This document shows, one piece after another, positions 15,112 through 30,516 of a stretch of DNA of 36,694 nt. Source of the DNA: Planctomycetota bacterium (GTDB lineage Bacteria > Planctomycetota > Phycisphaerae > WQYP01). The first letter of the stretch is position 1. Each line of letters starts with the position of its first letter. Below the pieces are notes generated by a model. That model worked only from the letters and a program-made list of their open reading frames with translations. It ran no database searches and was not told the DNA's origin. Location of the stretch: positions 1 through 36,694 of the forward strand of contig JAJZGD010000006.1 in assembly GCA_021804985.1 (NCBI GenBank), read 5' to 3'. A program made the position numbers and the translations under genes.

Positions 15112-15549
15112 TTAACGAATCAAAAACAGCGAAATCAGCGTTATCAGCAATACGCCAAGCGTAACGAAGGCATAAAATCGGTCTTTATCAAAAAAGGTGA
15201 ACAACACCACGCTTACCGCCACGCGCGTAACGGGGGTTAATACCAGCAGAAGCAGGCCAACTTCAATAATCGATTCGCCGGAGCCCCGCAGTGCGCCCGC
15301 TATCAGACGATGGTTGCTCCACTTGAATGTAGCATGCTCCATGTATTTCACACTCGGTGATCGCTGGATGAAGCTGAGAACAAATCCGATCAGCATCACA
15401 ATTACACTGAGCGCTACACCGATCCGGAGCACCCAGCCCGACACATCTTGAATCAGGCTGTCATCGCGAATTGCCGGCGGAGCCGGTGTCTGCGGTGAAT
15501 CCGGCTCGGCCGGTGGTTGGGGCGATCCGATGGGAGCTGTATCATTCAT
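15112..15549 (-). CDS. DUF1634 membrane protein
   Basis: The 145-aa protein has a Pro-rich N terminus and three hydrophobic segments: 'VLRIGVALSVIVMLIGFVLSF', 'SIIEVGLLLLVLTPVTRVAVSVVLF' and 'YAFVTLGVLLITLISLFLI'. This matches DUF1634, a family repeatedly found next to TauE/SafE permeases. Its ATG overlaps the upstream TauE/SafE stop as TAATG, so the two are translationally coupled and probably form one membrane system. The function is unknown; a partner or regulator of the permease is a reasonable inference. Confidence 0.85.
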   Translation of the reverse strand: MNDTAPIGSPQPPAEPDSPQTPAPPAIRDDSLIQDVSGWVLRIGVALSVIVMLIGFVLSFIQRSPSVKYMEHATFKWSNHRLIAGALRGSGESIIEVGLLLLVLTPVTRVAVSVVLFTFFDKDRFYAFVTLGVLLITLISLFLIR

Positions 15550-16403
15550 TACATGTGCACCTTGAAACCGCGAAGCAACATTTCCAGACCGACAATGCCG
15601 AGCGCCAGGGCAAAGACCTTGCGAACGGCCACATTGGACATTCGCTCCATTAATTTTGTGCCAATTAGCGCCCCCAACAGCACGGATGTTGCCACCGGAA
15701 CCACGAGATAGGGTAGCACCAGACCGCGGCGAAGATATACACCGGCTGCGGCGGCCCCGGTTACTCCGATCATAAAGTTGCTGGTAGCGGTCGATACTTT
15801 CGTTGGCAACTTCATGGCAATTTCCTGAGCCAGAACTTTAAGCACCCCCGCCCCGATCCCCAGGATGCCCGCCATCAGACCGGCAACAAACATGATGGCC
15901 ATAGCAGGCGGCACATGGGCGGCGTTGTAGAACACCTCCCGATTCATGCGTTTGTCGAAGTAGCTGCCCTGCAACTTGAGGAAATTGGCAAGCCGGTCAT
16001 TTTTGATGTTTTTGGGCAGCTCATCACCAAAGCGAAACATGACCGGAATCAGCGAAAGCAAAAGTGTGACGCCAAACAGAATCGATAGCAGCTGCGCATT
16101 GAGAAACCTGGCCAAAACCGCTGCACCGAATACCGCGCCCGTAGCGGTTGACAATTCCAGAAACATGGCAATGCGAACATTGGTGATATGATCGCGCACA
16201 TATACAGCACCCGCACCCGACGATACGGCAATAACCGAAACGATGCTGGCGCCGATCGCATCTTCAATGGGAAGGCCCATGAAAATCGTCAGAACGGGCA
16301 CAATGACAATCCCGCCCCCGAGGCCGCTGATGGCCCCCACGATGCCGCCGATGCATGAAAAGACCGCAATTTTTAATATCCATAGGATCGATACGAATGA
16401 CAC
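15549..16403 (-). CDS. TauE/SafE-family sulfite/anion exporter
   Basis: This polytopic protein (about eight hydrophobic segments) opens with 'IAVFSCIGGIVGAISGLGGGIVIVPVLTIFMGLPIEDAIGAS'. Its second repeat half carries 'FVAGLMAGILGIGAGVLKVLAQEIAMKLPTKVSTATSNFMIGVTG'. These paired GxxxGxGGG-type loops define TauE/SafE permeases, which move sulfite, sulfonates or similar anions; the substrate here is unknown. The ORF-track start at 16541 adds 46 residues that are not membrane-like. GTG at 16403 has GGAG about 10 nt upstream and gives 284 aa, a usual length. The stop overlaps the start of DUF1634. Confidence 0.87.
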   Translation of the reverse strand: MSFVSILWILKIAVFSCIGGIVGAISGLGGGIVIVPVLTIFMGLPIEDAIGASIVSVIAVSSGAGAVYVRDHITNVRIAMFLELSTATGAVFGAAVLARFLNAQLLSILFGVTLLLSLIPVMFRFGDELPKNIKNDRLANFLKLQGSYFDKRMNREVFYNAAHVPPAMAIMFVAGLMAGILGIGAGVLKVLAQEIAMKLPTKVSTATSNFMIGVTGAAAAGVYLRRGLVLPYLVVPVATSVLLGALIGTKLMERMSNVAVRKVFALALGIVGLEMLLRGFKVHM

Positions 16404-16661
16404 GCGTGGCGGACTCCGCAAAAGAAAAAAGCCATGATTACTGCGATGGCTCAATGAGCAGCGTGTTAGGCTAGAGGATTCTTTCCGGATGATCAAATGG
16501 ACGCACACGGCGCCCCAACCACTATCGACAGCCAGACACACTCAAGACCTGCAGACGGAGGGAACGAGACACCGGTGGAATGGGACTTTACCCTTTCCCT
16601 CAAGCCATTTGCCCTACCCTTTCCCACTCTTTGGTCCAGCCAACTCTTTGGGCCATTTTGG

Positions 16662-16690
16662 CAGACACACCCCAACGGCCGCAGTATAAT
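16662..16690 (+). promoter_or_regulatory. Promoter for the 74-aa/nucleotidyltransferase unit, leaderless
   Basis: CAGACA (16662-16667) and a perfect TATAAT (16685-16690) are separated by 17 bp. The TATAAT ends 6 nt before the ATG at 16697, so transcription should start at the A of the start codon. No Shine-Dalgarno sequence is possible in such a transcript. The surrounding 16404-16696 shows no other feature that I can support. Confidence 0.55.
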
Positions 16691-16696
16691 CCTGGC

Positions 16697-16921
16697 ATGG
16701 ATTCGGGAATTGACAAAGCGCAGTGGCTCAAGACCTACCGCCAAACCACTGAGATGTTGGAAGTCATACGTGCGAGGGAACTGGTCGCCTTAACCGATGA
16801 AGAAGTGTGGCGACGAATCAAATCATTAAAAGTGGTGGGCAAACCGTGGCGTGAACGACCGGATTGGTCGGGGCTGGTGGAGCAGCAGGAATTATTCCAT
16901 CGCGGCAGAAAGCGCCAATGA
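16697..16921 (+). CDS. Small protein (74 aa) with SGLVEQQ motif, paired with nucleotidyltransferase
   Basis: The family has no function known to me. The protein is charged, mostly helical and soluble: 'WLKTYRQTTEMLEVIRARELVALTDEEVWRRIKSL', followed by 'PWRERPDWSGLVEQQELFHRGRKRQ'. I believe similar small proteins with an 'SGLVEQQ..F' end occur beside nucleotidyltransferases in other genomes, but this is from memory and unchecked. Its stop overlaps the next start as ATGA, so the two are translationally coupled. The order (small gene first, larger enzyme second) is that of many toxin-antitoxin operons, and an antitoxin or adaptor role is inference only. The ATG at 16697 is fixed by the TATAAT just upstream; the longer ORF-track start at 16580 lies upstream of that promoter. 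Confidence 0.68.
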   Translation: MDSGIDKAQWLKTYRQTTEMLEVIRARELVALTDEEVWRRIKSLKVVGKPWRERPDWSGLVEQQELFHRGRKRQ

Positions 16922-17502
16922 ACGGCTTGGACGATGTGATTGCTGCAGCGGCGGAAGTTGAGATATTCTGCCACAGCCACGGGTGGCAGTTCTGCTTCAT
17001 TGGCGGCATTGCGGTGCAGCGCTGGGGCATGCCACGTTTCACGCAGGATGTTGACCTTACCCTGATGACCGGGCTGGGCGACGAGAGTAAGTTTATTGAC
17101 ACCTTGCTGGAAACATTTCCCGGGCGACTGGCAAACGCGCGGCAATTCGCGTTAGAGCACCGCGTTCTCCTGGCCCGGACCACGGGCCTGATAGACCTGG
17201 ATATTGCGATGGGGGCATTTCCGTTTGAGGAAGCATCCATCAGGCGAGCCACGCCGTGGAATGTCAACGAGTTGGTGACATTGACCACCTGCTCCGCGGA
17301 AGACCTGATTATTCATAAAGTGTTTGCGGCTCGGGATCGCGATTGGAGCGACGCTGAAAGCATTCTTGTTCGGCAACACGGTGCGCTCAATCTGACTCAT
17401 ATTCGGCGCGAACTGCCGCCCTTGCTTGAGTTGAAGGACGATATTGGATCGATGAGAAAATTGGAACGGATGATGGCCATGGTGGCACAGCGATCACGGT
17501 AA
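16918..17502 (+). CDS. AbiEii-like nucleotidyltransferase
   Basis: The 194-aa protein has a DNA polymerase beta-type nucleotidyltransferase core. 'CFIGGIAVQRWGMPRFTQDVDLTLMT' gives the GG and the RxTxDxD metal-binding pair, and 'GLIDLDIAMGAF' is a likely third acidic strand. The C-terminal 'SAEDLIIHKVFAARDRDWSDAESIL' fits the helical region of AbiEii/DUF6036-type proteins. Members include type IV toxins that transfer nucleotides to tRNA as well as uncharacterised enzymes. The catalytic residues look intact. ATG at 16918 overlaps the stop of the 74-aa gene (ATGA). Whether this is a toxin, a defence factor or a housekeeping enzyme cannot be decided from sequence. Confidence 0.8.
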   Translation: MNGLDDVIAAAAEVEIFCHSHGWQFCFIGGIAVQRWGMPRFTQDVDLTLMTGLGDESKFIDTLLETFPGRLANARQFALEHRVLLARTTGLIDLDIAMGAFPFEEASIRRATPWNVNELVTLTTCSAEDLIIHKVFAARDRDWSDAESILVRQHGALNLTHIRRELPPLLELKDDIGSMRKLERMMAMVAQRSR

Positions 17503-17679: not shown

Positions 17680-19059
17680 TTAATCGGGTCGCCTGACAAT
17701 CAAAAGCTTCGCTCCATGGCTTGCCACCGGCAGGCTGATCCAGCCGTTGTGTTCGCCCAGGCTGCTGTTATTCCACACATCGCGAACCACGCACCGTGCG
17801 GGCAGGCCGAGCTTCCGCCATGCGGCGGCCACCATTGTGCCGTCATTGGGGCCCCGATTGAACAGGGCGATTGCCAAGGCGCCGCCAGCCAAATGCTTGG
17901 CCCAAAATTCCAATGGCCCGTTTTGCGTGATGCGGATGCCTTGGGCGCCAAGCGGGTCTTGGTTGATCGCCAGCATTTCCGGATTCGTGAGAAGGGAAAG
18001 CGTCCACGGGTCCATCCCTGGTAGTTTGCTGCCGATTACCAGTGGCGACGGAGCAATGCCCCAAAGCGTCATAACCGTGCGCTGCTCATCCATGGTGAGA
18101 TGGGTCATCCTTAAGCCCCCTACCGCCGATCTGCCAATACGGCCCAGCGGTAACATGTCGCAATCGGGCCAATGCCCCGGCCCGCCATGGCCTTTCCACT
18201 CCGCGACAAGGTCGATCATGTTGTCGATGATCCGCCAGGAATCCCAGCAGTCATTGCGGATTCGCCACATGTTGGCATGATGGGAAATATCCTCCGCTTC
18301 GGAAATCGGAGTAGGCCCGGGTGAAGTGCTGAAGACAATTTTGGGCCCATATTGATTGAGCGCCCGACGCAGGGCGTGAATTTCAGCCTTGTGATAGGGA
18401 TACGAAAGATCATCGACCTTAATAAACCGCACACCCCATGACGCATAAAGTCGGATGATCGAATTGAAATAGGCCTGCCCAGCGGGGGTATTGCCGCGAA
18501 CACCGTACATGTCACTATTCCAGGCGCAGACGCTGTGAACATCGGCGGCATCGCGAGCGGTGAAATGGGAATCAAAAATGGGTGTGTTGGCGGCGACCGC
18601 CTGCCGGGGAATGCCACGCATAATATGAATACCAAATTCCAGGCCCATGGCGGCGATCCTATCGGCCAACGGCGTAAAGCCGACACCCCCGCGAGCGGAC
18701 GGAAATTTATTGGTTGCCGGCAGCAGTCGGCCATATTTATCCATCGCCAGCGGGCCGTTATGTGCGACGCCCCCGGTGGCCTGTGATGGATCAAACCAGA
18801 GGTAATCAATCACGCAATATTTGTAGCCAAAATCCAAAAGATGCGTTTGTTGATATTCGGCGTTGGCAAGAACTTCCGCCTCGGTAACGGTCGAGCCGTA
18901 ATAGTCGTAGCTGTTCCAACCCATGGGCGGCGTGAGGGCGAGTTTCCAATAGGCTGGTGCAACCGATTTTTGAGCCGCCTGCGATGAACCGGCAAAGCCA
19001 CCGGCCGCAGCAAGGGCGGCAGCCGCCGCCGCGGATTGGATAAAGTCTCTACGATTCAT
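17680..19059 (-). CDS. GH27 alpha-galactosidase, Tat-exported
   Basis: The 459-aa enzyme has a twin-arginine-type signal ('MNRRDFIQSAAAAAALAAAGGFAG'). The (beta/alpha)8 barrel begins 'TPPMGWNSYDYYG' (residues ~43-55). The nucleophile region is 'RFIKVDDLSYPY' (Asp216) and the acid/base region is 'WRIRNDCWDSW' (Asp270), matching the KxD and RNxxD sites of GH27. A C-terminal beta domain follows. GH27 members cut terminal alpha-galactose; some act on N-acetylgalactosamine or arabinopyranose. Start ATG at 19059 has CGGAG 8 nt upstream. It is the last of three same-strand hydrolase genes, 109 bp after GH92. Confidence 0.93.
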   Translation of the reverse strand: MNRRDFIQSAAAAAALAAAGGFAGSSQAAQKSVAPAYWKLALTPPMGWNSYDYYGSTVTEAEVLANAEYQQTHLLDFGYKYCVIDYLWFDPSQATGGVAHNGPLAMDKYGRLLPATNKFPSARGGVGFTPLADRIAAMGLEFGIHIMRGIPRQAVAANTPIFDSHFTARDAADVHSVCAWNSDMYGVRGNTPAGQAYFNSIIRLYASWGVRFIKVDDLSYPYHKAEIHALRRALNQYGPKIVFSTSPGPTPISEAEDISHHANMWRIRNDCWDSWRIIDNMIDLVAEWKGHGGPGHWPDCDMLPLGRIGRSAVGGLRMTHLTMDEQRTVMTLWGIAPSPLVIGSKLPGMDPWTLSLLTNPEMLAINQDPLGAQGIRITQNGPLEFWAKHLAGGALAIALFNRGPNDGTMVAAAWRKLGLPARCVVRDVWNNSSLGEHNGWISLPVASHGAKLLIVRRPD

Positions 19060-19168
19060 TTCGATCGCTCCGTAATTAAGACCCGCATGGCGAGAGGAAC
19101 AACGCTTAATACCAACCGTTATTTCGAATTTAAAAGGCTAATTGGATTTTGCTCCGGCGGTGCCCTCG

Positions 19169-21655
19169 TCAAACAATTAGACCGGATGGCGGACGATCGG
19201 CTTTAGCGGCAGCCCATTCCTTATTGGGCTTAGGCCCCATGTGAAATCGCAACTCGCCGCCAGCAAGAATGTCGGCATTGGTAAACCATGATCGTGTGAG
19301 TTCTTTGCCGTTGAGGGCGGCTTTCTGAATGAACATGTTGGCCTGCGAATTATTTTCCGCAACGATGGTGAATACTTTTCCCGTGAGGGGATTGCGAATT
19401 TTCGCGCGACGGATGAGTGGGCTTCCAATGATATAAACGCCCGTGACCGCATTGACGGGATAAAAGCCCAACGCCCCGAGCGTGAAGCAACTCGATATCT
19501 GGCCGCAATCATCATTACCGGGAATGCCATTGGGTGTGTTGTTGTACAGCGCGAGGACTTTCCTGATCCAGTATTGCGTCTTCCATGCGGCGCCGGCGAA
19601 GGGATAAAGATAGGGTATATGGTTACTCGGTTCATTGCCCTGCGCATCTTGCCCGACCATACCGCTGACATCCGGCGACGTGCGATAAGTTTTTGACGGC
19701 GCCCGAAAGAAGGCATCGAGCCGGGCGATAAATGGCGCATCTCCGCCGTAAAGATCAATCAAACCCTGCACATCCTGCATGACATTGAAGCTGGCCTGCC
19801 ATGCATCGGATTCGGTGTAATCACTCCAGTATTCCTCATTGGGTCGGAACGGCTGGCGCCATTTTCCTGATTCGGTTTTGCCCCGCATAAAGCCCGAGGC
19901 AGGATCAAAAAGATTTTTATAGTTTTGGCCAAGTTTATAGAACATTTCGGCATCGGCATGATGCCCGAGAAGCTGTGCCATCGCCCCGACGCACCAGTAA
20001 TCGTAAGCAAAATCCAGCGTTCGCGAAACGGATTGCCTGCCCGGCCCCGTCGGCACATATCCGAAATGCCGGAATTGCCGCTGGAGCTCTTTGTTGTCAT
20101 TGGTGGTGGCTCCCACCAAAGCTGTATCGCGCATCGCCTGATAAACCGCGGCAACATCGTAATTTCTGAACCCTCTTACATAAGCACCTGCAATCATGCC
20201 GACGACATGAAACCCGGTCATGCACCAGGTTTCGTTGCCCCAGAGAGGCCAGACCGGCAACGAATGTTGCTGCAACTGCTGATAGTCTGCCAGAAGGGTT
20301 TTGATCACATCATTGGTGCGATGCGGTTGTGCCAGCATCATGAGGGGAAATTCTCCCCGATAGATATCCCAGATCGACATGGTCGTATAGTTGGTGAATC
20401 CCGGATTGGGGTGATTTTTTCGATCTTCACCGCGATACGTTCCATCAACATCATTGAAGGTGGCTGGCGCCACCATGTTGTGGTAGGCGGCGGTATAAAA
20501 TGTTTCCGCGTGGGCTTGGTCTGAAAAATGGGCGTCCAGCGCGGCCAGAGCGCTACTCCACGCCTGCTGTGCCTTGCGCTTTATGGCGTCAAAATGCCAA
20601 TGGGGTATCTCCGCCGCCAGATTCTTCTCTGCGCCGTGAACGCCGGTGGCCGAAATTCCGACGCGCATCATCAGTGAGCTGTTTGCGGGCGAGCTGGTGA
20701 ACATGGCGCGGATGTGCTTGCCCGACAGGCTGTCGCCCGGCTTAGCGGTTTGAATTTTTCCATCCACCTGAACCTGCACCTGCGTAAAGGGCTGGGAAAA
20801 TTCAATGACAAAATAGACCTGACGATTGGGCGCCCAGCCATGCGTAAATCGGCTGCCGGTAATGCGTGTATCGCTTTCTACCTTTAGATCGGCGTGATAT
20901 ACCGCACATCCCAGGCCATGCACCAGATCCAAAATAACTCCCCGGCGTGCGGCTGGCGGCACGGCGGAGTAGTCATATCGATGCATGCCACACCGACACG
21001 TTGCGGTCAGTTCCGCCTTGACGCCTGGTGTTTGCAGATCCACGCTGTAGTAGCCGGGGCGAGCAACCTCTTGCCGGTGTGAAAACCAAGAGCAGTATCC
21101 GTGTGCTTTATCGCGGGGAACCCAACCTGAATTCGGGCCCAATGCCTGCAATTGATCTTCGTGTTGTTTGCCGGGGGCCTGGGCATGCCACGCCCAGTTA
21201 GCGCCTTCGACGATCGGCATCAGCAGCACATCGCCAAGGTCTTTGGCACCGGTTCCTGAGAGGTGGGTGTGGCTAAAGCCCTTAATTATGTTGTCGGGGT
21301 AGTGATAGCCGGAGCAATGATCCCAGTGGTAAATATCCCAGCGAGTGTTCCATTTTGGTTCAGGCGGCCCCAGCGTGTCGGGGCTAAGTTGCACCAGGCC
21401 AAACGGCACCGTGGCGCCGGGAAACGTATGGCCATGCCAGCCGGTACCGATCAAAGGTCGAACCAGATGGACGGGTTCAAAGCGATCTGGTTTCAGCATT
21501 GGGCCGGTGGGCGCAACGGCATCGGCCGAAGGCGAGGTGGCGCCCCGGGACGCGCGCGGCAGCCATATTGCCGCCGCGGCCGCCGCCATCATGGCCTTCA
21601 CTATGGAACGGCGATTTAGATATCCGCCGGTTCTAGTTTGATCGAGCTCCACCAT
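19169..21655 (-). CDS. GH92 alpha-mannosidase, exported
   Basis: The 828-aa protein has a twin-arginine-type N-terminal signal ('NRRSIVKAMMAAAAAAIWLPRASRGA'). GH92 hallmarks follow: 'PLIGTGWHGHTFPGATVPFGLVQLSPDT' at the start of the N-terminal beta-sandwich domain, 'GNETWCMTGFHVVGMIAGAYV' in the (alpha/alpha)6 barrel, and 'GNDDCGQISSCFTLGALGFYPV' near the C terminus, whose acidic pair fits the family's general base. GH92 enzymes are calcium-dependent exo-alpha-mannosidases acting mainly on N-glycans and yeast mannan. ATG at 21655 is preferred to the ORF-track GTG 21664 because AAGGG lies about 10 nt upstream. It sits between GH2 (113 bp) and GH27 (109 bp). Confidence 0.93.
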   Translation of the reverse strand: MVELDQTRTGGYLNRRSIVKAMMAAAAAAIWLPRASRGATSPSADAVAPTGPMLKPDRFEPVHLVRPLIGTGWHGHTFPGATVPFGLVQLSPDTLGPPEPKWNTRWDIYHWDHCSGYHYPDNIIKGFSHTHLSGTGAKDLGDVLLMPIVEGANWAWHAQAPGKQHEDQLQALGPNSGWVPRDKAHGYCSWFSHRQEVARPGYYSVDLQTPGVKAELTATCRCGMHRYDYSAVPPAARRGVILDLVHGLGCAVYHADLKVESDTRITGSRFTHGWAPNRQVYFVIEFSQPFTQVQVQVDGKIQTAKPGDSLSGKHIRAMFTSSPANSSLMMRVGISATGVHGAEKNLAAEIPHWHFDAIKRKAQQAWSSALAALDAHFSDQAHAETFYTAAYHNMVAPATFNDVDGTYRGEDRKNHPNPGFTNYTTMSIWDIYRGEFPLMMLAQPHRTNDVIKTLLADYQQLQQHSLPVWPLWGNETWCMTGFHVVGMIAGAYVRGFRNYDVAAVYQAMRDTALVGATTNDNKELQRQFRHFGYVPTGPGRQSVSRTLDFAYDYWCVGAMAQLLGHHADAEMFYKLGQNYKNLFDPASGFMRGKTESGKWRQPFRPNEEYWSDYTESDAWQASFNVMQDVQGLIDLYGGDAPFIARLDAFFRAPSKTYRTSPDVSGMVGQDAQGNEPSNHIPYLYPFAGAAWKTQYWIRKVLALYNNTPNGIPGNDDCGQISSCFTLGALGFYPVNAVTGVYIIGSPLIRRAKIRNPLTGKVFTIVAENNSQANMFIQKAALNGKELTRSWFTNADILAGGELRFHMGPKPNKEWAAAKADRPPSGLIV

Positions 21656-21768
21656 TTGGCGCACACCCTTCGTTCATTGTGGTATCCATCGCGGCCAACC
21701 AGGCTCTGCGGTATCTCGGCCTTGCGCGCCGGCAGATGCGCCAGGGGCGCACGGCCGCTGCAAGACGT

Positions 21769-24693
21769 CTAAGCTGGCAATGCGGGCAGCGTCACCTGCG
21801 CGGGGGTAAGCCCGGGCGAGCGTGCCATCAGTGTGAGGCTTCCGGCGTGCCGATCGGCCCGCACCAACGCCATGCACAGCCCATTAAATGCACTGCGATA
21901 ATTCGCTTGATTGGGCTCAAGGCAACTCGGGTCGCCATTACCCACACCACTGATGACGCCGGGCCCCTGCAGAGAAAAACTCACCATATTCGCGGCCGTC
22001 GGCACCACGCGCCCAAGTTTGTCAACGATACTCACCGCAATGGGGACCGTATCCTGGCCATCGGCGATCATGCTGCGGCGATCCGGTGTCAGGCGAATGG
22101 CCGCCGGTGCGCCGGTGGTCGCAACCATGGTAGTGGCGACGAGCACCCCGTTGTTGTAACCGCGTGCCTCGAGATGGCCAGGCGTGTAAAGCACTCGGTT
22201 CCATTGCAGGTGGCGAAACGCCGCCATGCGTTTTTTACCCAGGCTTTTCCCGTTTAGCAGCAGTTCGACATACTGGCAATTGCTGAAGCACCAGACGGGG
22301 ATATTTTTACCCTCCATGCCAGGCCAATTCCAATGGGGAAAAATGTGGAGTACTGGGGTATCGGGCATCCACACCGATTTCCAGTAATAGGCCCCATCCT
22401 TGGGAAAACCGCACATATCCAGAAAACCGAAATTGGAGTTGATTTCGGGCCAGCCGAAAGGCGCTGTTTCACCGCGGTAATCAAAACCCGTCCAATAGAA
22501 GCCGCCGGCGACGAATCGCCGCGTGGCCAGCGGATGCCATGATCCTTCGGGCGACATGTAGCTGGTCAGGTGACCGGCTTTCTTGTTGGTATGGTAAATG
22601 CCACGGCATTCGAGATTGCTGCCGATTTCACTGCCAAAGATCATTTTGTCCGGGTAGGCGTGATGGAGCCAATCGAAGTCACCATAATTGTAGTTCACGC
22701 CAAGAATACTTTCGGCCGCTCCGTCGCCGTGGAGCCAGCCGTGTTTACCGAGGCCATGATTATCCGCACAGGTAATGGGGCGGGTTTCATCATGGCGGTG
22801 AACTACCTCCATGAGAAATGCCATCATCTTGCGTCCGTAGGCGTCGCTTTGGATGTTCCATTCTTCATTCCACATCGACCACATGATGATGCTCGGGTGA
22901 TTGCGATCGCGCAGAACCAGCGACTCCACGTGCCAGACATTGTGATAGGGCTGCCCAACCCACGATTTTGTGGCGATGGTCGAGCCCGGGTGTCGATTTT
23001 CGTCCATGACGAGCAGACCGAGTTCATCACACGCGTCATACATGGATGGCGCCATCGGATTATGTGAACAGCGAATGGCATTGCAGCCGAACTCTTTGAG
23101 GCGCTTCATGCGGTAGAAAAGGATGCTGTCGGGCAGGCCGATGCCAACGCCGGCGAAATCCTGATGGTTGCAGGTGCCCTGGATTTTCACGGGCTGTTCG
23201 TTCAGGAAAAAGCCGGCGTCCGGATCAAAACGGAGGGTGCGAATGCCGAACTTCTGCTTATGCCGATCCACTACGTTGCCATCGGAAAGAATTTCGGTTT
23301 CAACGTGGTAGCGATGAGTATGCTCGAGCGACCAAAGCAATACACTGGGTAAATGCAATTCCTGAATTAACTTGGTACCGAGATGCAGATCGCTGGGCTG
23401 ATCGATATTCGACGCGTCAGATTCTAACACCGCTTTTTGCACGGCAGGGAGAATCATCGGCCCGACCGGCGGAACGCCAATCTCGGTGGATACGGTTCCG
23501 ACAAGCTGCCCGGTTGGATCGTATACCTTGGAGACGACGCCGCAGCGCTTCGATGCCGCGGTGTGGTTGGCCACGGTGGTCTGGATGCTGAGCGTGGCCC
23601 ACGGATTGGTTTCCACCGCTTGCACGTTGCTGGTGACATACACGCCCCACGGGGCGACATGCACGCGGTCGGCCACGTTAAGCCACACATGGCGGTAAAT
23701 GCCGCCCCCTTCATACCACCACCCCTCAAAATTGGTGGGGTCTACATACACCGCGAGCAGGTTGTCATGGCCGAACGCAACATGATCTGAAATATCAACA
23801 TGAAAAGATGTATAACCGCCGGGGTGCTCGGAAATTAATTTTCCATTGAGATAGATTTTGGCATCGCGGTAAACGCCCTCAAAGTAAAGCCACAGCGATT
23901 TGCCTGCATCTGCAGCCGGGATATGAATATGCCTGCGATACCATGCCGGATAGACGGGCAGCGAGCCATGACCGCGGACGGCGGCGCGGCTGTATTTACC
24001 CTCGACAATGTAATCGTGGGGCAACTGCACCTTTTGCCATGACGAATCATTGGTTTGCGGCGCATAGGCGGCCAATTCCGCGGGCATGTAACCAGCCAGA
24101 ACCGGTCCATAAATGCCACCCGGGCCGGCCGTGTTGTTAACGAGCACCGTGAGAATGTTGGGGCCATTGGGGTTCCAATGATCGTCCAATGGCACATAAA
24201 ACTTTAAATCCCATCCCTGGTGCGATTGGATGAAGTGCCCATTAAGGTAGATGCTTCCATTGTCATCCACATGGGTGAATTCAATCGCGCGCCCGGCATG
24301 GTTCATGGGTGGCAGTGTTGTGCGGTACCACGCATACCCCACCGGCATACCTTGGAACTTTGTGTCGACCTTATGCCAGCCGTGGCCAGTTGTGTCCACG
24401 TGCATGGCGGTCATCTCGGCAACTTGGTCGGGCGTGCCTTGCTTCCAAAACCAGGTATCAATGGAGACTGCATTTTTGGGGTTGGAAAAATGGGCTGCAC
24501 GTTTGAAGCGCCAGTCAAAATCCAGCAATTCCACCCTGCGGGGAGCGCAGCCATGATTCTTAGCGGTCTCCAATCGGCCGACTTCGAATCGGTCCGCCTG
24601 CGACATTTCTGCCGCTGAGCCGCTGGTACAGGAAGGAATCGCCGCCAACGTTGCCGTGCCGATACCGAGCTTGAGAAGATCACGCCGTTTCAT
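21769..24693 (-). CDS. GH2 beta-galactosidase-type hydrolase, Tat/lipoprotein signal
   Basis: The 974-aa enzyme has the GH2 layout. A jelly-roll sugar-binding domain includes 'KSLWLYFEGVYRDAKIYLNGKLISEHPGGYTSFHVDIS', followed by an immunoglobulin-like domain. The TIM barrel carries 'IRCSHNPMAPSMYDACDELGLLVMDE', acid/base Glu in 'SIIMWSMWNEEWN' and likely nucleophile Glu in 'KMIFGSEIGSN'. A DUF4982-like module and a C-terminal beta domain complete it. The N terminus, 'MKRRDLLKLGIGTATLAAIPSC', has a twin arginine and a lipobox-like Cys, so it may be a Tat-exported lipoprotein. Beta-galactosidase is most likely; beta-mannosidase or glucuronidase activity is possible. Start ATG at 24693 has GAGG 8 nt upstream. 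It is first in the hydrolase run. Confidence 0.9.
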   Translation of the reverse strand: MKRRDLLKLGIGTATLAAIPSCTSGSAAEMSQADRFEVGRLETAKNHGCAPRRVELLDFDWRFKRAAHFSNPKNAVSIDTWFWKQGTPDQVAEMTAMHVDTTGHGWHKVDTKFQGMPVGYAWYRTTLPPMNHAGRAIEFTHVDDNGSIYLNGHFIQSHQGWDLKFYVPLDDHWNPNGPNILTVLVNNTAGPGGIYGPVLAGYMPAELAAYAPQTNDSSWQKVQLPHDYIVEGKYSRAAVRGHGSLPVYPAWYRRHIHIPAADAGKSLWLYFEGVYRDAKIYLNGKLISEHPGGYTSFHVDISDHVAFGHDNLLAVYVDPTNFEGWWYEGGGIYRHVWLNVADRVHVAPWGVYVTSNVQAVETNPWATLSIQTTVANHTAASKRCGVVSKVYDPTGQLVGTVSTEIGVPPVGPMILPAVQKAVLESDASNIDQPSDLHLGTKLIQELHLPSVLLWSLEHTHRYHVETEILSDGNVVDRHKQKFGIRTLRFDPDAGFFLNEQPVKIQGTCNHQDFAGVGIGLPDSILFYRMKRLKEFGCNAIRCSHNPMAPSMYDACDELGLLVMDENRHPGSTIATKSWVGQPYHNVWHVESLVLRDRNHPSIIMWSMWNEEWNIQSDAYGRKMMAFLMEVVHRHDETRPITCADNHGLGKHGWLHGDGAAESILGVNYNYGDFDWLHHAYPDKMIFGSEIGSNLECRGIYHTNKKAGHLTSYMSPEGSWHPLATRRFVAGGFYWTGFDYRGETAPFGWPEINSNFGFLDMCGFPKDGAYYWKSVWMPDTPVLHIFPHWNWPGMEGKNIPVWCFSNCQYVELLLNGKSLGKKRMAAFRHLQWNRVLYTPGHLEARGYNNGVLVATTMVATTGAPAAIRLTPDRRSMIADGQDTVPIAVSIVDKLGRVVPTAANMVSFSLQGPGVISGVGNGDPSCLEPNQANYRSAFNGLCMALVRADRHAGSLTLMARSPGLTPAQVTLPALPA

Positions 24694-28887: not shown

Positions 28888-28986
28888 AAAATCATCTCAA
28901 GCATTTGCAACACTTTCCGCTAGAATACCGCAATGCGGCCCCGGCGAAACCACCGCCGCAAAACATGCTCCTGAACAGGAATCGCA

Positions 28987-30516
28987 ATGCTGGAAAATTC
29001 TCAAAGCACCCCCGCCATCACGGCGGAGCCATGTGCCTTGGTTATATTCGGAGCCACCGGCGATTTAACCGCTCGCAAGCTTCTACCCGCTATTTATAAC
29101 CTGAGTAAAGACGGCCTGCTGCCCCCGTCCAGCGTGGTCATTGGTTTTGCCCGACGCCCGAAAACCGACGCTGAATTTCGTGAAGAAATGCTCCGCGGCA
29201 TCAATGCCTTTTCGCGGAGCCGACCCGTGGATCCGGGTGTTTGGGAAAAATTGGCCCCCCGCCTTTTCTATCACCAGAGTTCCTTTGACCAAGCCGACGG
29301 CTATCAGTCGCTGGCGACGCGCCTGTTAGAGTTGGACAAAACTCACGGCCTTGGTGGTCGGCGGCTGTATTACCTCTCGACGAGTCCCACCGAATTCGGA
29401 ACCATCGTGTCGCAACTTGGTCAGGCGGGTTTGGGCAATATTGATCCCTTTAATTCCAAGGCGTGGCGACGCGTTATTGTCGAAAAGCCTTTCGGGCATG
29501 ATCTGCAATCGGCGCAACAACTAAACTGGGCAATCAATCGGGTGTTCGACGAATCGCAGGTTTTTCGAATTGACCACTACCTCGGCAAACAGACGGTACA
29601 GAATCTGCTGGTATTCCGATTCGCCAACGGCATCTTTGAGCCGATCTGGAATCGGCGATATGTCGATCATGTGCAAGTCACCGTTGCGGAAGACATCGGC
29701 GTGGAGGGCCGGGGCGGCTACTTTGATACTGCCGGCACCTTGCGGGATATGATCCAGAATCATTTGATGCAATTGCTCACGCTTGTCGCGATGGAGCCGC
29801 CGGTTTCGCTTGATGGCGACGCCATTCGGGATGAAAAAGTTCGGGTGCTTAAGGCGATCTCCGCGTTTACGCCCGAACAGGTGGAAAAAATGACCGTGCG
29901 CGGGCAATATTCCGCCGGCAGCGAAAATGGCAAACCGGTGATCGGCTATCATGAAGAACGGGGCGTCAAGGCGGACAGCACGACGGAAACATACGCCGCC
30001 GTGCAGCTGGCCATCGACAACTGGCGGTGGTATGGGGTGCCTTTTTACCTTCGAAGCGGCAAGCACCTGAAGCGTAAAGGATCGGAAATTAATATTCATT
30101 TTAACCGTGCACCCGGCGTGCTCTTCAACACGCCCCAGCGCGGTACCAGCGCCAATGTATTAACACTCCGCATTCAACCGCGTGAAAGCATTGGCCTGCG
30201 CATGAACGCCAAGCGTCCCGGAACGGCGGCGACCATCGCACCGGTTGGCATGAATTTTCATTACAGTGAGGCCTTCGGAAGTTATTCTCCGGAAGCTTAT
30301 GAGCGGCTGCTGCTGGATGCCATTTTAGGGGATTCCACACTTTTCATACGTCGCGATGAGGTTGAAAGCGCCTGGCAGATTATTGATCGAATTGAAGGCT
30401 CATGGGCCGCCGGAAAACCACCGCTCAAGATTTATTCACCGGGATCGTGGGGGCCGGCCGAAGCTGAAGAGCTTCTCAAGAGCAGCGGCCGTAGCTGGGA
30501 TGAATTACCGACTTAG
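28987..30516 (+). CDS. zwf: Glucose-6-phosphate 1-dehydrogenase
   Basis: Zwf oxidises glucose 6-phosphate to 6-phosphogluconolactone with NADP+, the entry to the oxidative pentose phosphate pathway. The 509-aa product has the Rossmann motif 'LVIFGATGDLTARKLLPAIY', 'RVIVEKPFGHD' and the active-site signature 'FRIDHYLGKQTVQNLLVFRFAN'. The substrate-binding region has 'WYGVPFYLRSGKHLKRKGSEI'. Length is normal. Start ATG at 28987 has AGGA 6 nt upstream. A TAGAAT at 28921-28926 could be its -10 box but lacks a matched -35. No pgl or gnd gene is adjacent, so it appears monocistronic. Confidence 0.97.
   Translation: MLENSQSTPAITAEPCALVIFGATGDLTARKLLPAIYNLSKDGLLPPSSVVIGFARRPKTDAEFREEMLRGINAFSRSRPVDPGVWEKLAPRLFYHQSSFDQADGYQSLATRLLELDKTHGLGGRRLYYLSTSPTEFGTIVSQLGQAGLGNIDPFNSKAWRRVIVEKPFGHDLQSAQQLNWAINRVFDESQVFRIDHYLGKQTVQNLLVFRFANGIFEPIWNRRYVDHVQVTVAEDIGVEGRGGYFDTAGTLRDMIQNHLMQLLTLVAMEPPVSLDGDAIRDEKVRVLKAISAFTPEQVEKMTVRGQYSAGSENGKPVIGYHEERGVKADSTTETYAAVQLAIDNWRWYGVPFYLRSGKHLKRKGSEINIHFNRAPGVLFNTPQRGTSANVLTLRIQPRESIGLRMNAKRPGTAATIAPVGMNFHYSEAFGSYSPEAYERLLLDAILGDSTLFIRRDEVESAWQIIDRIEGSWAAGKPPLKIYSPGSWGPAEAEELLKSSGRSWDELPT

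What the first reader, a model, noticed from the sequence alone, without database searches (positions are those of the whole stretch)
16697..17502. Coupled 74-aa protein and AbiEii-like nucleotidyltransferase: possible toxin-antitoxin or defence pair
The two genes overlap by ATGA, have their own consensus promoter, and are isolated from their neighbours. The second has an intact GG...RxTxDxD nucleotidyltransferase site. The first is a small charged protein ending in a distinctive 'SGLVEQQ' motif, unlike AbiEi or HEPN antitoxins that I know. Known relatives of the enzyme include tRNA-modifying toxins, so the small protein could be a new type of cognate partner.
Basis: partly seen in the sequence, partly recalled or inferred. 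Interest (0 to 1): 0.6.

Follow-up and report, generated by a model that had tools for sequence, protein, structure and literature searches.

The report
MenT-like toxin with new antitoxin family
A planctomycete chromosome carries a two-gene module that looks like a cell-poisoning tRNA-modifying enzyme plus a tiny protein that probably keeps it in check; the tiny protein belongs to no family in the libraries searched, and the enzyme half has been disabled many times in related bacteria while the small protein stays.

Summary
A 74-aa gene (16697-16921) and a 194-aa nucleotidyltransferase gene (16918-17502) overlap by ATGA and stand alone between two opposite-strand genes. Both evolve under strong purifying selection. 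The enzyme passes Pfam AbiEii; its nearest solved relative by sequence profile and predicted fold is the M. tuberculosis toxin MenT1, and the mapped MenT1 catalytic residues are present. The 74-aa family (invariant SGL...Q..F motif) has no significant hit in Pfam, NCBIfam, PADLOC, PHROGs or PDB. I found it at 28 loci in several planctomycete classes and families. In 397 class genomes searched from both sides, 14 of 15 close enzyme homologues carry it. Ten loci keep the small gene with the enzyme absent, broken or mutated at D46; none keeps an intact enzyme without the small gene. This asymmetry fits enzyme = toxin, small protein = antitoxin. The small gene has a conserved -10 box exactly 6 nt before its ATG, implying a leaderless transcript. 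Best reading: a MenAT1-like toxin-antitoxin module with a new antitoxin family. Toxicity, tRNA target and binding are inferred; no evidence of phage defence was found.

The parts
16662..16690 (+). Promoter-like site: weak -35 CAGACA, 17-nt spacer, perfect -10 TATAAT ending 6 nt before the ATG; predicts a leaderless mRNA starting at or next to the A of the start codon
   Evidence: fixed TANAAT-N6-ATG spacing in 14 of 20 representative relatives
16697..16921 (+). 74-aa small protein, predicted antitoxin; predicted long N-terminal helix 7-31, short helix 34-43, loop, C-terminal helix 60-73 with the SGLVEQQ..F motif
   Evidence: invariant W10, S58, G59, L60, Q64; near-invariant Q63, F67; AF2, pLDDT 76, pTM 0.39; purifying selection; no significant family hit
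16918..17502 (+). 194-aa MenT/AbiEii-type nucleotidyltransferase, predicted toxin; catalytic set R40, T42, D44, D46, K134, D142, D145 intact
   Evidence: Pfam AbiEii 1.4e-7, over cut-off; PDB profile hit MenT1 2e-7; AF2 pLDDT 90.9, Foldseek MenT1 9.4e-9, TM 0.75; residues
16918..16921 (+). ATGA stop-start overlap coupling the two genes
   Evidence: the same 4-nt overlap in 10 of the 16 loci with a full-length NTase; other loci have small gaps or overlaps, one has a 190-nt gap (L063), one the reverse order (L102)

Best explanation
The pair is a chromosomal toxin-antitoxin module of the MenAT1 kind with an antitoxin from a previously unclassified family. SHOWN by sequence: two co-transcribable, overlapping genes; a MenT1-like nucleotidyltransferase with an intact active site; a conserved small partner encoded upstream in nearly all homologues; repeated loss of the enzyme, but not of the partner alone. 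INFERRED: the enzyme adds nucleotides to the 3' acceptor end of tRNA and so stops translation, as MenT1, MenT3 and MenT4 do. The small protein is made first, from a leaderless mRNA, and binds the enzyme, its long N-terminal helix lying across the active-site face as in MenA1. It either blocks the site or pushes T42 (equivalent of MenT1 T39) toward bound nucleotide to cause self-inactivating phosphorylation.
For: Pfam AbiEii 1.4e-7. A 12-sequence profile finds exactly one PDB sequence at E<=0.1, MenT1, E 2e-7; Foldseek ranks MenT1 structures 1-5 (best 9.4e-9, TM 0.75). MenT1 residues R37/T39/D41/D43/K137/D149/D152 (PMC10435456, PMC11375011) map to R40/T42/D44/D46/K134/D142/D145, intact here and, D46 aside, invariant in 16 full-length homologues. 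In 397 class genomes, 14 of 15 close NTases (E<1e-40) have the small gene. Small gene intact with NTase absent (G710, G531, G447, G701), broken (G410, G400, G399) or D46-mutated (G417, G408, G409): 10 loci; intact NTase without small gene: 0; at least 8 events if neighbours in one genus are merged. The absent/broken pattern recurs outside the class (G032, G320) and D46G in G061. Both genes purified. MenA1 is likewise a short upstream protein with a long alpha1, loop and short alpha2, alpha1 alone sufficing (PMC10435456); the AF2 model here has long helix, loop, short helix. Patchy: absent from the three congeners, where synteny with the window stops at the sulfite-exporter gene next to the pair. 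Known TA neighbours at one orphan: L065 is followed by RHH plus PemK/MazF. Leaderless TA transcripts are typical in M. tuberculosis (PMC8485053).
Against: No toxicity, binding or tRNA data. The small protein shows no detectable sequence or fold similarity to MenA1, whose complex 8an5 is in the PDB set searched, and its own model is low confidence (pTM 0.39). The small gene persists as an orphan at many loci, which could also mean a function of its own. Many loci come from MAGs, so single breaks (for example the G400 frameshift, listed coverage 1.8) may be assembly errors. Distribution was sampled only inside Planctomycetota.
Confidence: 0.72

Rival explanations
1. A housekeeping or regulatory enzyme: the NTase modifies a tRNA, protein or small molecule usefully and the small protein is an obligatory subunit or substrate adaptor.
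For: Both genes are under purifying selection. A sister NTase group with a different 66-76 aa partner sits repeatedly beside argJ in many planctomycetes (L082-L095), as a vertically kept gene pair might.
Against: The pair itself is patchy (13 of 28 family genomes including weak remnants, absent from the three congeners) and the enzyme is recurrently deleted or catalytically mutated while the partner stays, odd for an enzyme with a dependent subunit.
Confidence: 0.13
2. Inverted roles, as in HEPN-MNT modules: the small protein is the toxin and the NTase its modifying antitoxin.
For: In HEPN-MNT systems the nucleotidyltransferase is the antitoxin (established knowledge).
Against: The small gene survives without an active NTase at 10 class loci, which would be self-poisoning. 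The window protein has no HEPN R-x4-6-H motif (its histidine H68 is 14 residues after the nearest arginine, R54; inspection) and is half the length of a typical HEPN domain. The NTase resembles MenT1, not a minimal MNT.
Confidence: 0.05
3. An AbiE-like abortive-infection (anti-phage) module.
For: The enzyme belongs to Pfam AbiEii and matches PADLOC AbiEii weakly (E 0.001; 6 of 12 members at E<=0.01).
Against: No AbiEi-type antitoxin; no phage, plasmid or viral-contig carriage found; no defence genes recognised next to the pair. Not exclusive with the TA reading.
Confidence: 0.07
4. A decaying selfish relic without present function, kept only by chance.
For: Many relatives are remnants.
Against: In the window both ORFs and every mapped catalytic residue are intact and dN/dS is low.
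Confidence: 0.03

Closest known systems
MenA1-MenT1 (Rv0078B-Rv0078A), M. tuberculosis, PDB 8an4/8an5/8rr5
   Same: Short antitoxin gene upstream of a roughly 195-aa MenT-fold NTase; the catalytic residues map one to one, including the phosphoacceptor threonine (T39 = T42); best PDB hit by profile and by fold. MenA1 has a long alpha1, loop, short alpha2; the model here is similar in order.
   Different: The small protein has no detectable sequence or fold similarity to MenA1; it carries a C-terminal SGLVEQQ..F motif more conserved than its N-terminal helix, whereas MenA1's C-terminal part is dispensable when overexpressed (PMC10435456). NTase identity is only about 17-20% in the structural alignment.
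AbiEi-AbiEii (AbiE) and MenA3/MenA4-MenT3/MenT4
   Same: AbiEii/DUF1814-family NTase as the second gene.
   Different: Their antitoxins are COG5340-type, winged-helix two-domain proteins; here the partner has 74 aa, no HTH and no Pfam hit.
DUF6036-type NTase plus 66-76 aa partner beside argJ (L082-L095)
   Same: Same gene order and often a one- or four-base overlap; related NTase (A5 profile E about 1e-17 to 1e-26).
   Different: The partner family does not align with this one (hhalign probability 0.7%); fixed genomic location; the NTase prefers the DUF6036 and DUF2204 models.
HEPN-MNT
   Same: Nucleotidyltransferase plus small partner.
   Different: Roles reversed; no HEPN motif here.

Membership tests
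MenT / AbiEii-type NTase toxin | Homology to the AbiEii/DUF1814 domain | tested here: met
   PF08843 1.4e-7, 32.1 bits over a 22.5-bit cut-off
MenT / AbiEii-type NTase toxin | MenT fold | tested here: met
   AF2 pLDDT 90.9; Foldseek to MenT1 9.4e-9, TM 0.75
MenT / AbiEii-type NTase toxin | Catalytic residues D41, K137, D152 (needed for MenT1 toxicity), D43 and T39 | tested here: met
   D44, K134, D145, D46, T42 in the window; D46 lost in L013, L016, L017, L102 (PMC10435456)
MenT / AbiEii-type NTase toxin | Toxic; modifies tRNA acceptor ends | not testable with these tools
   needs expression and in vitro assay
MenAT1 system | Short antitoxin gene directly upstream of menT | tested here: met
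   74 aa versus 68 aa; ATGA overlap (PMC10435456)
MenAT1 system | Antitoxin homologous to MenA1 | tested here: not met
   Profiles of the small family do not find 8an5 even at E<=10; Foldseek of the small model finds nothing
MenAT1 system | Antitoxin with long alpha1, loop, short alpha2 | tested here: inconclusive
   Predicted helices 7-31, 34-43 and 60-73, but pTM 0.39
MenAT1 system | Asymmetric T:A:T heterotrimer; antitoxin-induced threonine auto-phosphorylation | not testable with these tools
   The phosphoacceptor equivalent T42 is invariant in 16 homologues
AbiE | AbiEi antitoxin: wHTH plus COG5340 domain | tested here: not met
   74-aa partner, no Pfam/PADLOC hit
HEPN-MNT | HEPN partner with R-x4-6-H motif | tested here: not met
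   Motif absent from P0001 by inspection; no HEPN Pfam hit

The most novel reading that the evidence does not exclude
A new antitoxin family, defined by an invariant C-terminal SGL...Q..F motif, pairs with MenT-type tRNA-modifying toxins across Planctomycetota. It acts differently from MenA1, with the C-terminal motif rather than the N-terminal helix as the inhibitory element, and is expressed from a deliberately leaderless mRNA so that antitoxin is still made when the toxin disturbs translation. Loci with a lone D46 mutation in an otherwise conserved enzyme have turned it into a non-catalytic regulator.
Probability: 0.2. Interest if true: 0.7.

Novelty: new variant of a known kind. Interest (0 to 1): 0.5.

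Why it matters
MenT-type toxins poison cells by blocking tRNA 3' ends, and how such varied antitoxins silence one enzyme fold is an open question; a further antitoxin family with its own conserved motif, found with natural catalytic-dead and deleted versions of its enzyme, offers a direct test. It also adds planctomycetes to the map of this toxin class and gives a concrete case of a TA operon with a conserved leaderless promoter.

Tried and rejected
Plasmid and phage records with both proteins and with more distant members, and viral contigs with four profiles: no relatives. PHROGs, NCBIfam: none for the small protein. A common origin of the 74-aa family and the 66-76 aa partners of the DUF6036-type NTases: not supported. 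Clean empty-site comparison in congeners: only the sulfite-exporter block is syntenic, so no target site could be defined. Within the window TANAAT-N6-ATG occurs twice against 0.95 expected, so the leaderless claim rests on conservation across relatives, not on the window alone. First family scans failed from a wrong frame and were repeated. L098 (NTase stops near a contig end) was left out of the decay tally. No complex prediction was possible with the single-chain tool. The PIN-like identity of an ORF next to the pair in L114 was not confirmed by Pfam and is not used as evidence.

Full report
What is there. The window lies in a 3.1-Mb planctomycete MAG (the nearest named relatives are Planctomycetota/Phycisphaerales MAGs). 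At 16697-16921 (+) is a 74-aa ORF and at 16918-17502 (+) a 194-aa ORF; they share ATGA. Both neighbours run on the other strand: a sulfite-exporter-like gene (15549-16541, named by eye) and an alpha-galactosidase (17680-19059; Pfam Melibiase_2 1.2e-22). The own genome holds one copy of the small gene and one AbiEii-type gene over the cut-off.

The enzyme. It passes Pfam AbiEii (1.4e-7). Alone it finds MenT1 of M. tuberculosis only marginally in the PDB (0.032), but a 12-member profile finds MenT1 and no other PDB sequence at E<=0.1 (2e-7). The AlphaFold2 model is good (pLDDT 90.9, pTM 0.86) and the five best Foldseek hits are MenT1 structures, the best at 9.4e-9, TM 0.75. From the profile alignment, MenT1 R37, T39, D41, D43, K137, D149 and D152 fall on R40, T42, D44, D46, K134, D142 and D145. 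MenT1 toxicity needs D41, K137 and D152; D41 and D43 hold the metal; T39 is the phosphoacceptor (PMC10435456, PMC11375011). All are intact in the window.

The small protein. It has no significant hit in Pfam, NCBIfam, PADLOC, PHROGs or PDB, singly or as a profile. In a 19-sequence alignment W10, S58, G59, L60 and Q64 are invariant and Q63 and F67 nearly so. More distant members read SGLAELQRWF, SGLLEMQKYF or SGLVEMQAWF. The predicted structure is a confident long helix (7-31), a short helix, a loop, and a helix carrying the motif, at modest overall confidence (pTM 0.39).

Co-occurrence. Searching with the small protein gave the pair or its remnants in 13 of 28 genomes of the window's family, two of them weak hits with stops, in further families of the class and in other classes: 28 loci in all (L079 and L099 are one locus). 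Sixteen have a full-length NTase next door; ten of these have exactly the 4-nt overlap, one has a 190-nt gap and one the reverse order (L102). From the enzyme side, 397 class genomes gave 15 close homologues (E<1e-40); 14 have the small gene. The exception, L080, is frameshifted and has a different small partner.

Asymmetric decay. Among the class genomes searched from both sides, ten loci have an intact, or essentially intact, small ORF but an NTase that is absent (G710, G531, G447, G701), truncated or frameshifted (G410, G400, G399) or altered at D46 (G417 D46N, G408 D46A, G409 D46G). In G408 the first ATG is ATA with another ATG 9 nt on, and in G531 the C-terminus is extended. Ten loci have both intact, one has both broken, none has an intact NTase without the small gene. 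Merging same-genus cases that may share an event leaves at least eight losses on one side against none on the other (sign test about 0.008; my arithmetic). Two of three further cases from other classes are losses of the enzyme body (G032, G320) and one is D46G (G061). All other mapped catalytic positions are invariant, so D46 is the one catalytic position lost by substitution, in three or four lineages. If the small protein were a toxin, or a dependent subunit, this pattern would be unexpected; for an antitoxin it is what one expects. Caveats: MAG assembly error can explain single breaks (G400 has listed coverage 1.8), and the small-gene search is biased toward finding small genes; the enzyme-side search guards against that.

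Selection. Close pairs give dN/dS of 0.03-0.18 for the small gene and 0.14-0.30 for the enzyme. Both are real proteins.

Expression. A -10-like hexamer ends exactly 6 nt before the small-gene ATG in 14 of 20 representative loci, across families whose flanks do not align; no other spacing has more than two. Transcription would then begin at or next to the ATG: a leaderless mRNA. In M. tuberculosis TA transcripts are generally leaderless, and toxin-altered ribosomes can prefer such mRNAs (PMC8485053). Whether leaderless starts are common in this organism was not tested.

Mechanism. By analogy, the NTase adds nucleotides to tRNA 3' ends and stops translation, and the small protein binds it. MenA1, also short and upstream, lies across two MenT1 active sites with its long helix and induces T39 auto-phosphorylation (PMC10435456, PMC11375011); T42 is invariant here, so the same route is possible. 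That it works like MenAT1 is likely; that the small protein is a MenA1 is not supported.

Novelty. Module type known, antitoxin family apparently new: no entry in the libraries searched and no paper found. Absence from the open-access library does not prove it undescribed. Defence is possible but nothing found here points to it.

Noticed in passing
L082-L095 (several planctomycete families), e.g. L084:1277-2037: A second, different 66-76 aa protein family precedes DUF6036-type NTases with one- or four-base overlaps, repeatedly between a carbon-nitrogen hydrolase and argJ-like gene (names by eye); unrelated to the 74-aa family by hhalign.
   Followed up: partly
L013, L016, L017, L102: Only the second Asp of the DxD motif (D46) is lost (N, A, G, G) in otherwise conserved full-length NTases, in at least three lineages; it may be a favoured way to disarm the enzyme or a switch to a non-catalytic role.
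   Followed up: partly
L065:1468-2387: Orphan small gene without an NTase, followed by a ribbon-helix-helix gene and a PemK/MazF toxin.
   Followed up: partly
L114:4520-7974: The distant pair in G156 lies between two short-gene pairs whose larger members look like PIN-type proteins by eye; Pfam gave no hit for the one tested. In the same-genus L009 only the NTase is missing.
   Followed up: partly
L102:821-1737: Reverse gene order: NTase (D46G) first, small gene second, overlapping.
   Followed up: no
window 17680-24693 (-): Run of three glycoside-hydrolase-like genes with signal peptides (alpha-galactosidase by Pfam; the other two by eye GH92-like and beta-galactosidase-like) directly beyond the pair; in three congeners synteny with the window stops at the sulfite-exporter gene, so this side is lineage-specific.
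   Followed up: no
window 28921-28935 (+): Second TANAAT-N6-ATG match, upstream of the ORF at 28987 that looks like glucose-6-phosphate dehydrogenase; probably chance.
   Followed up: no
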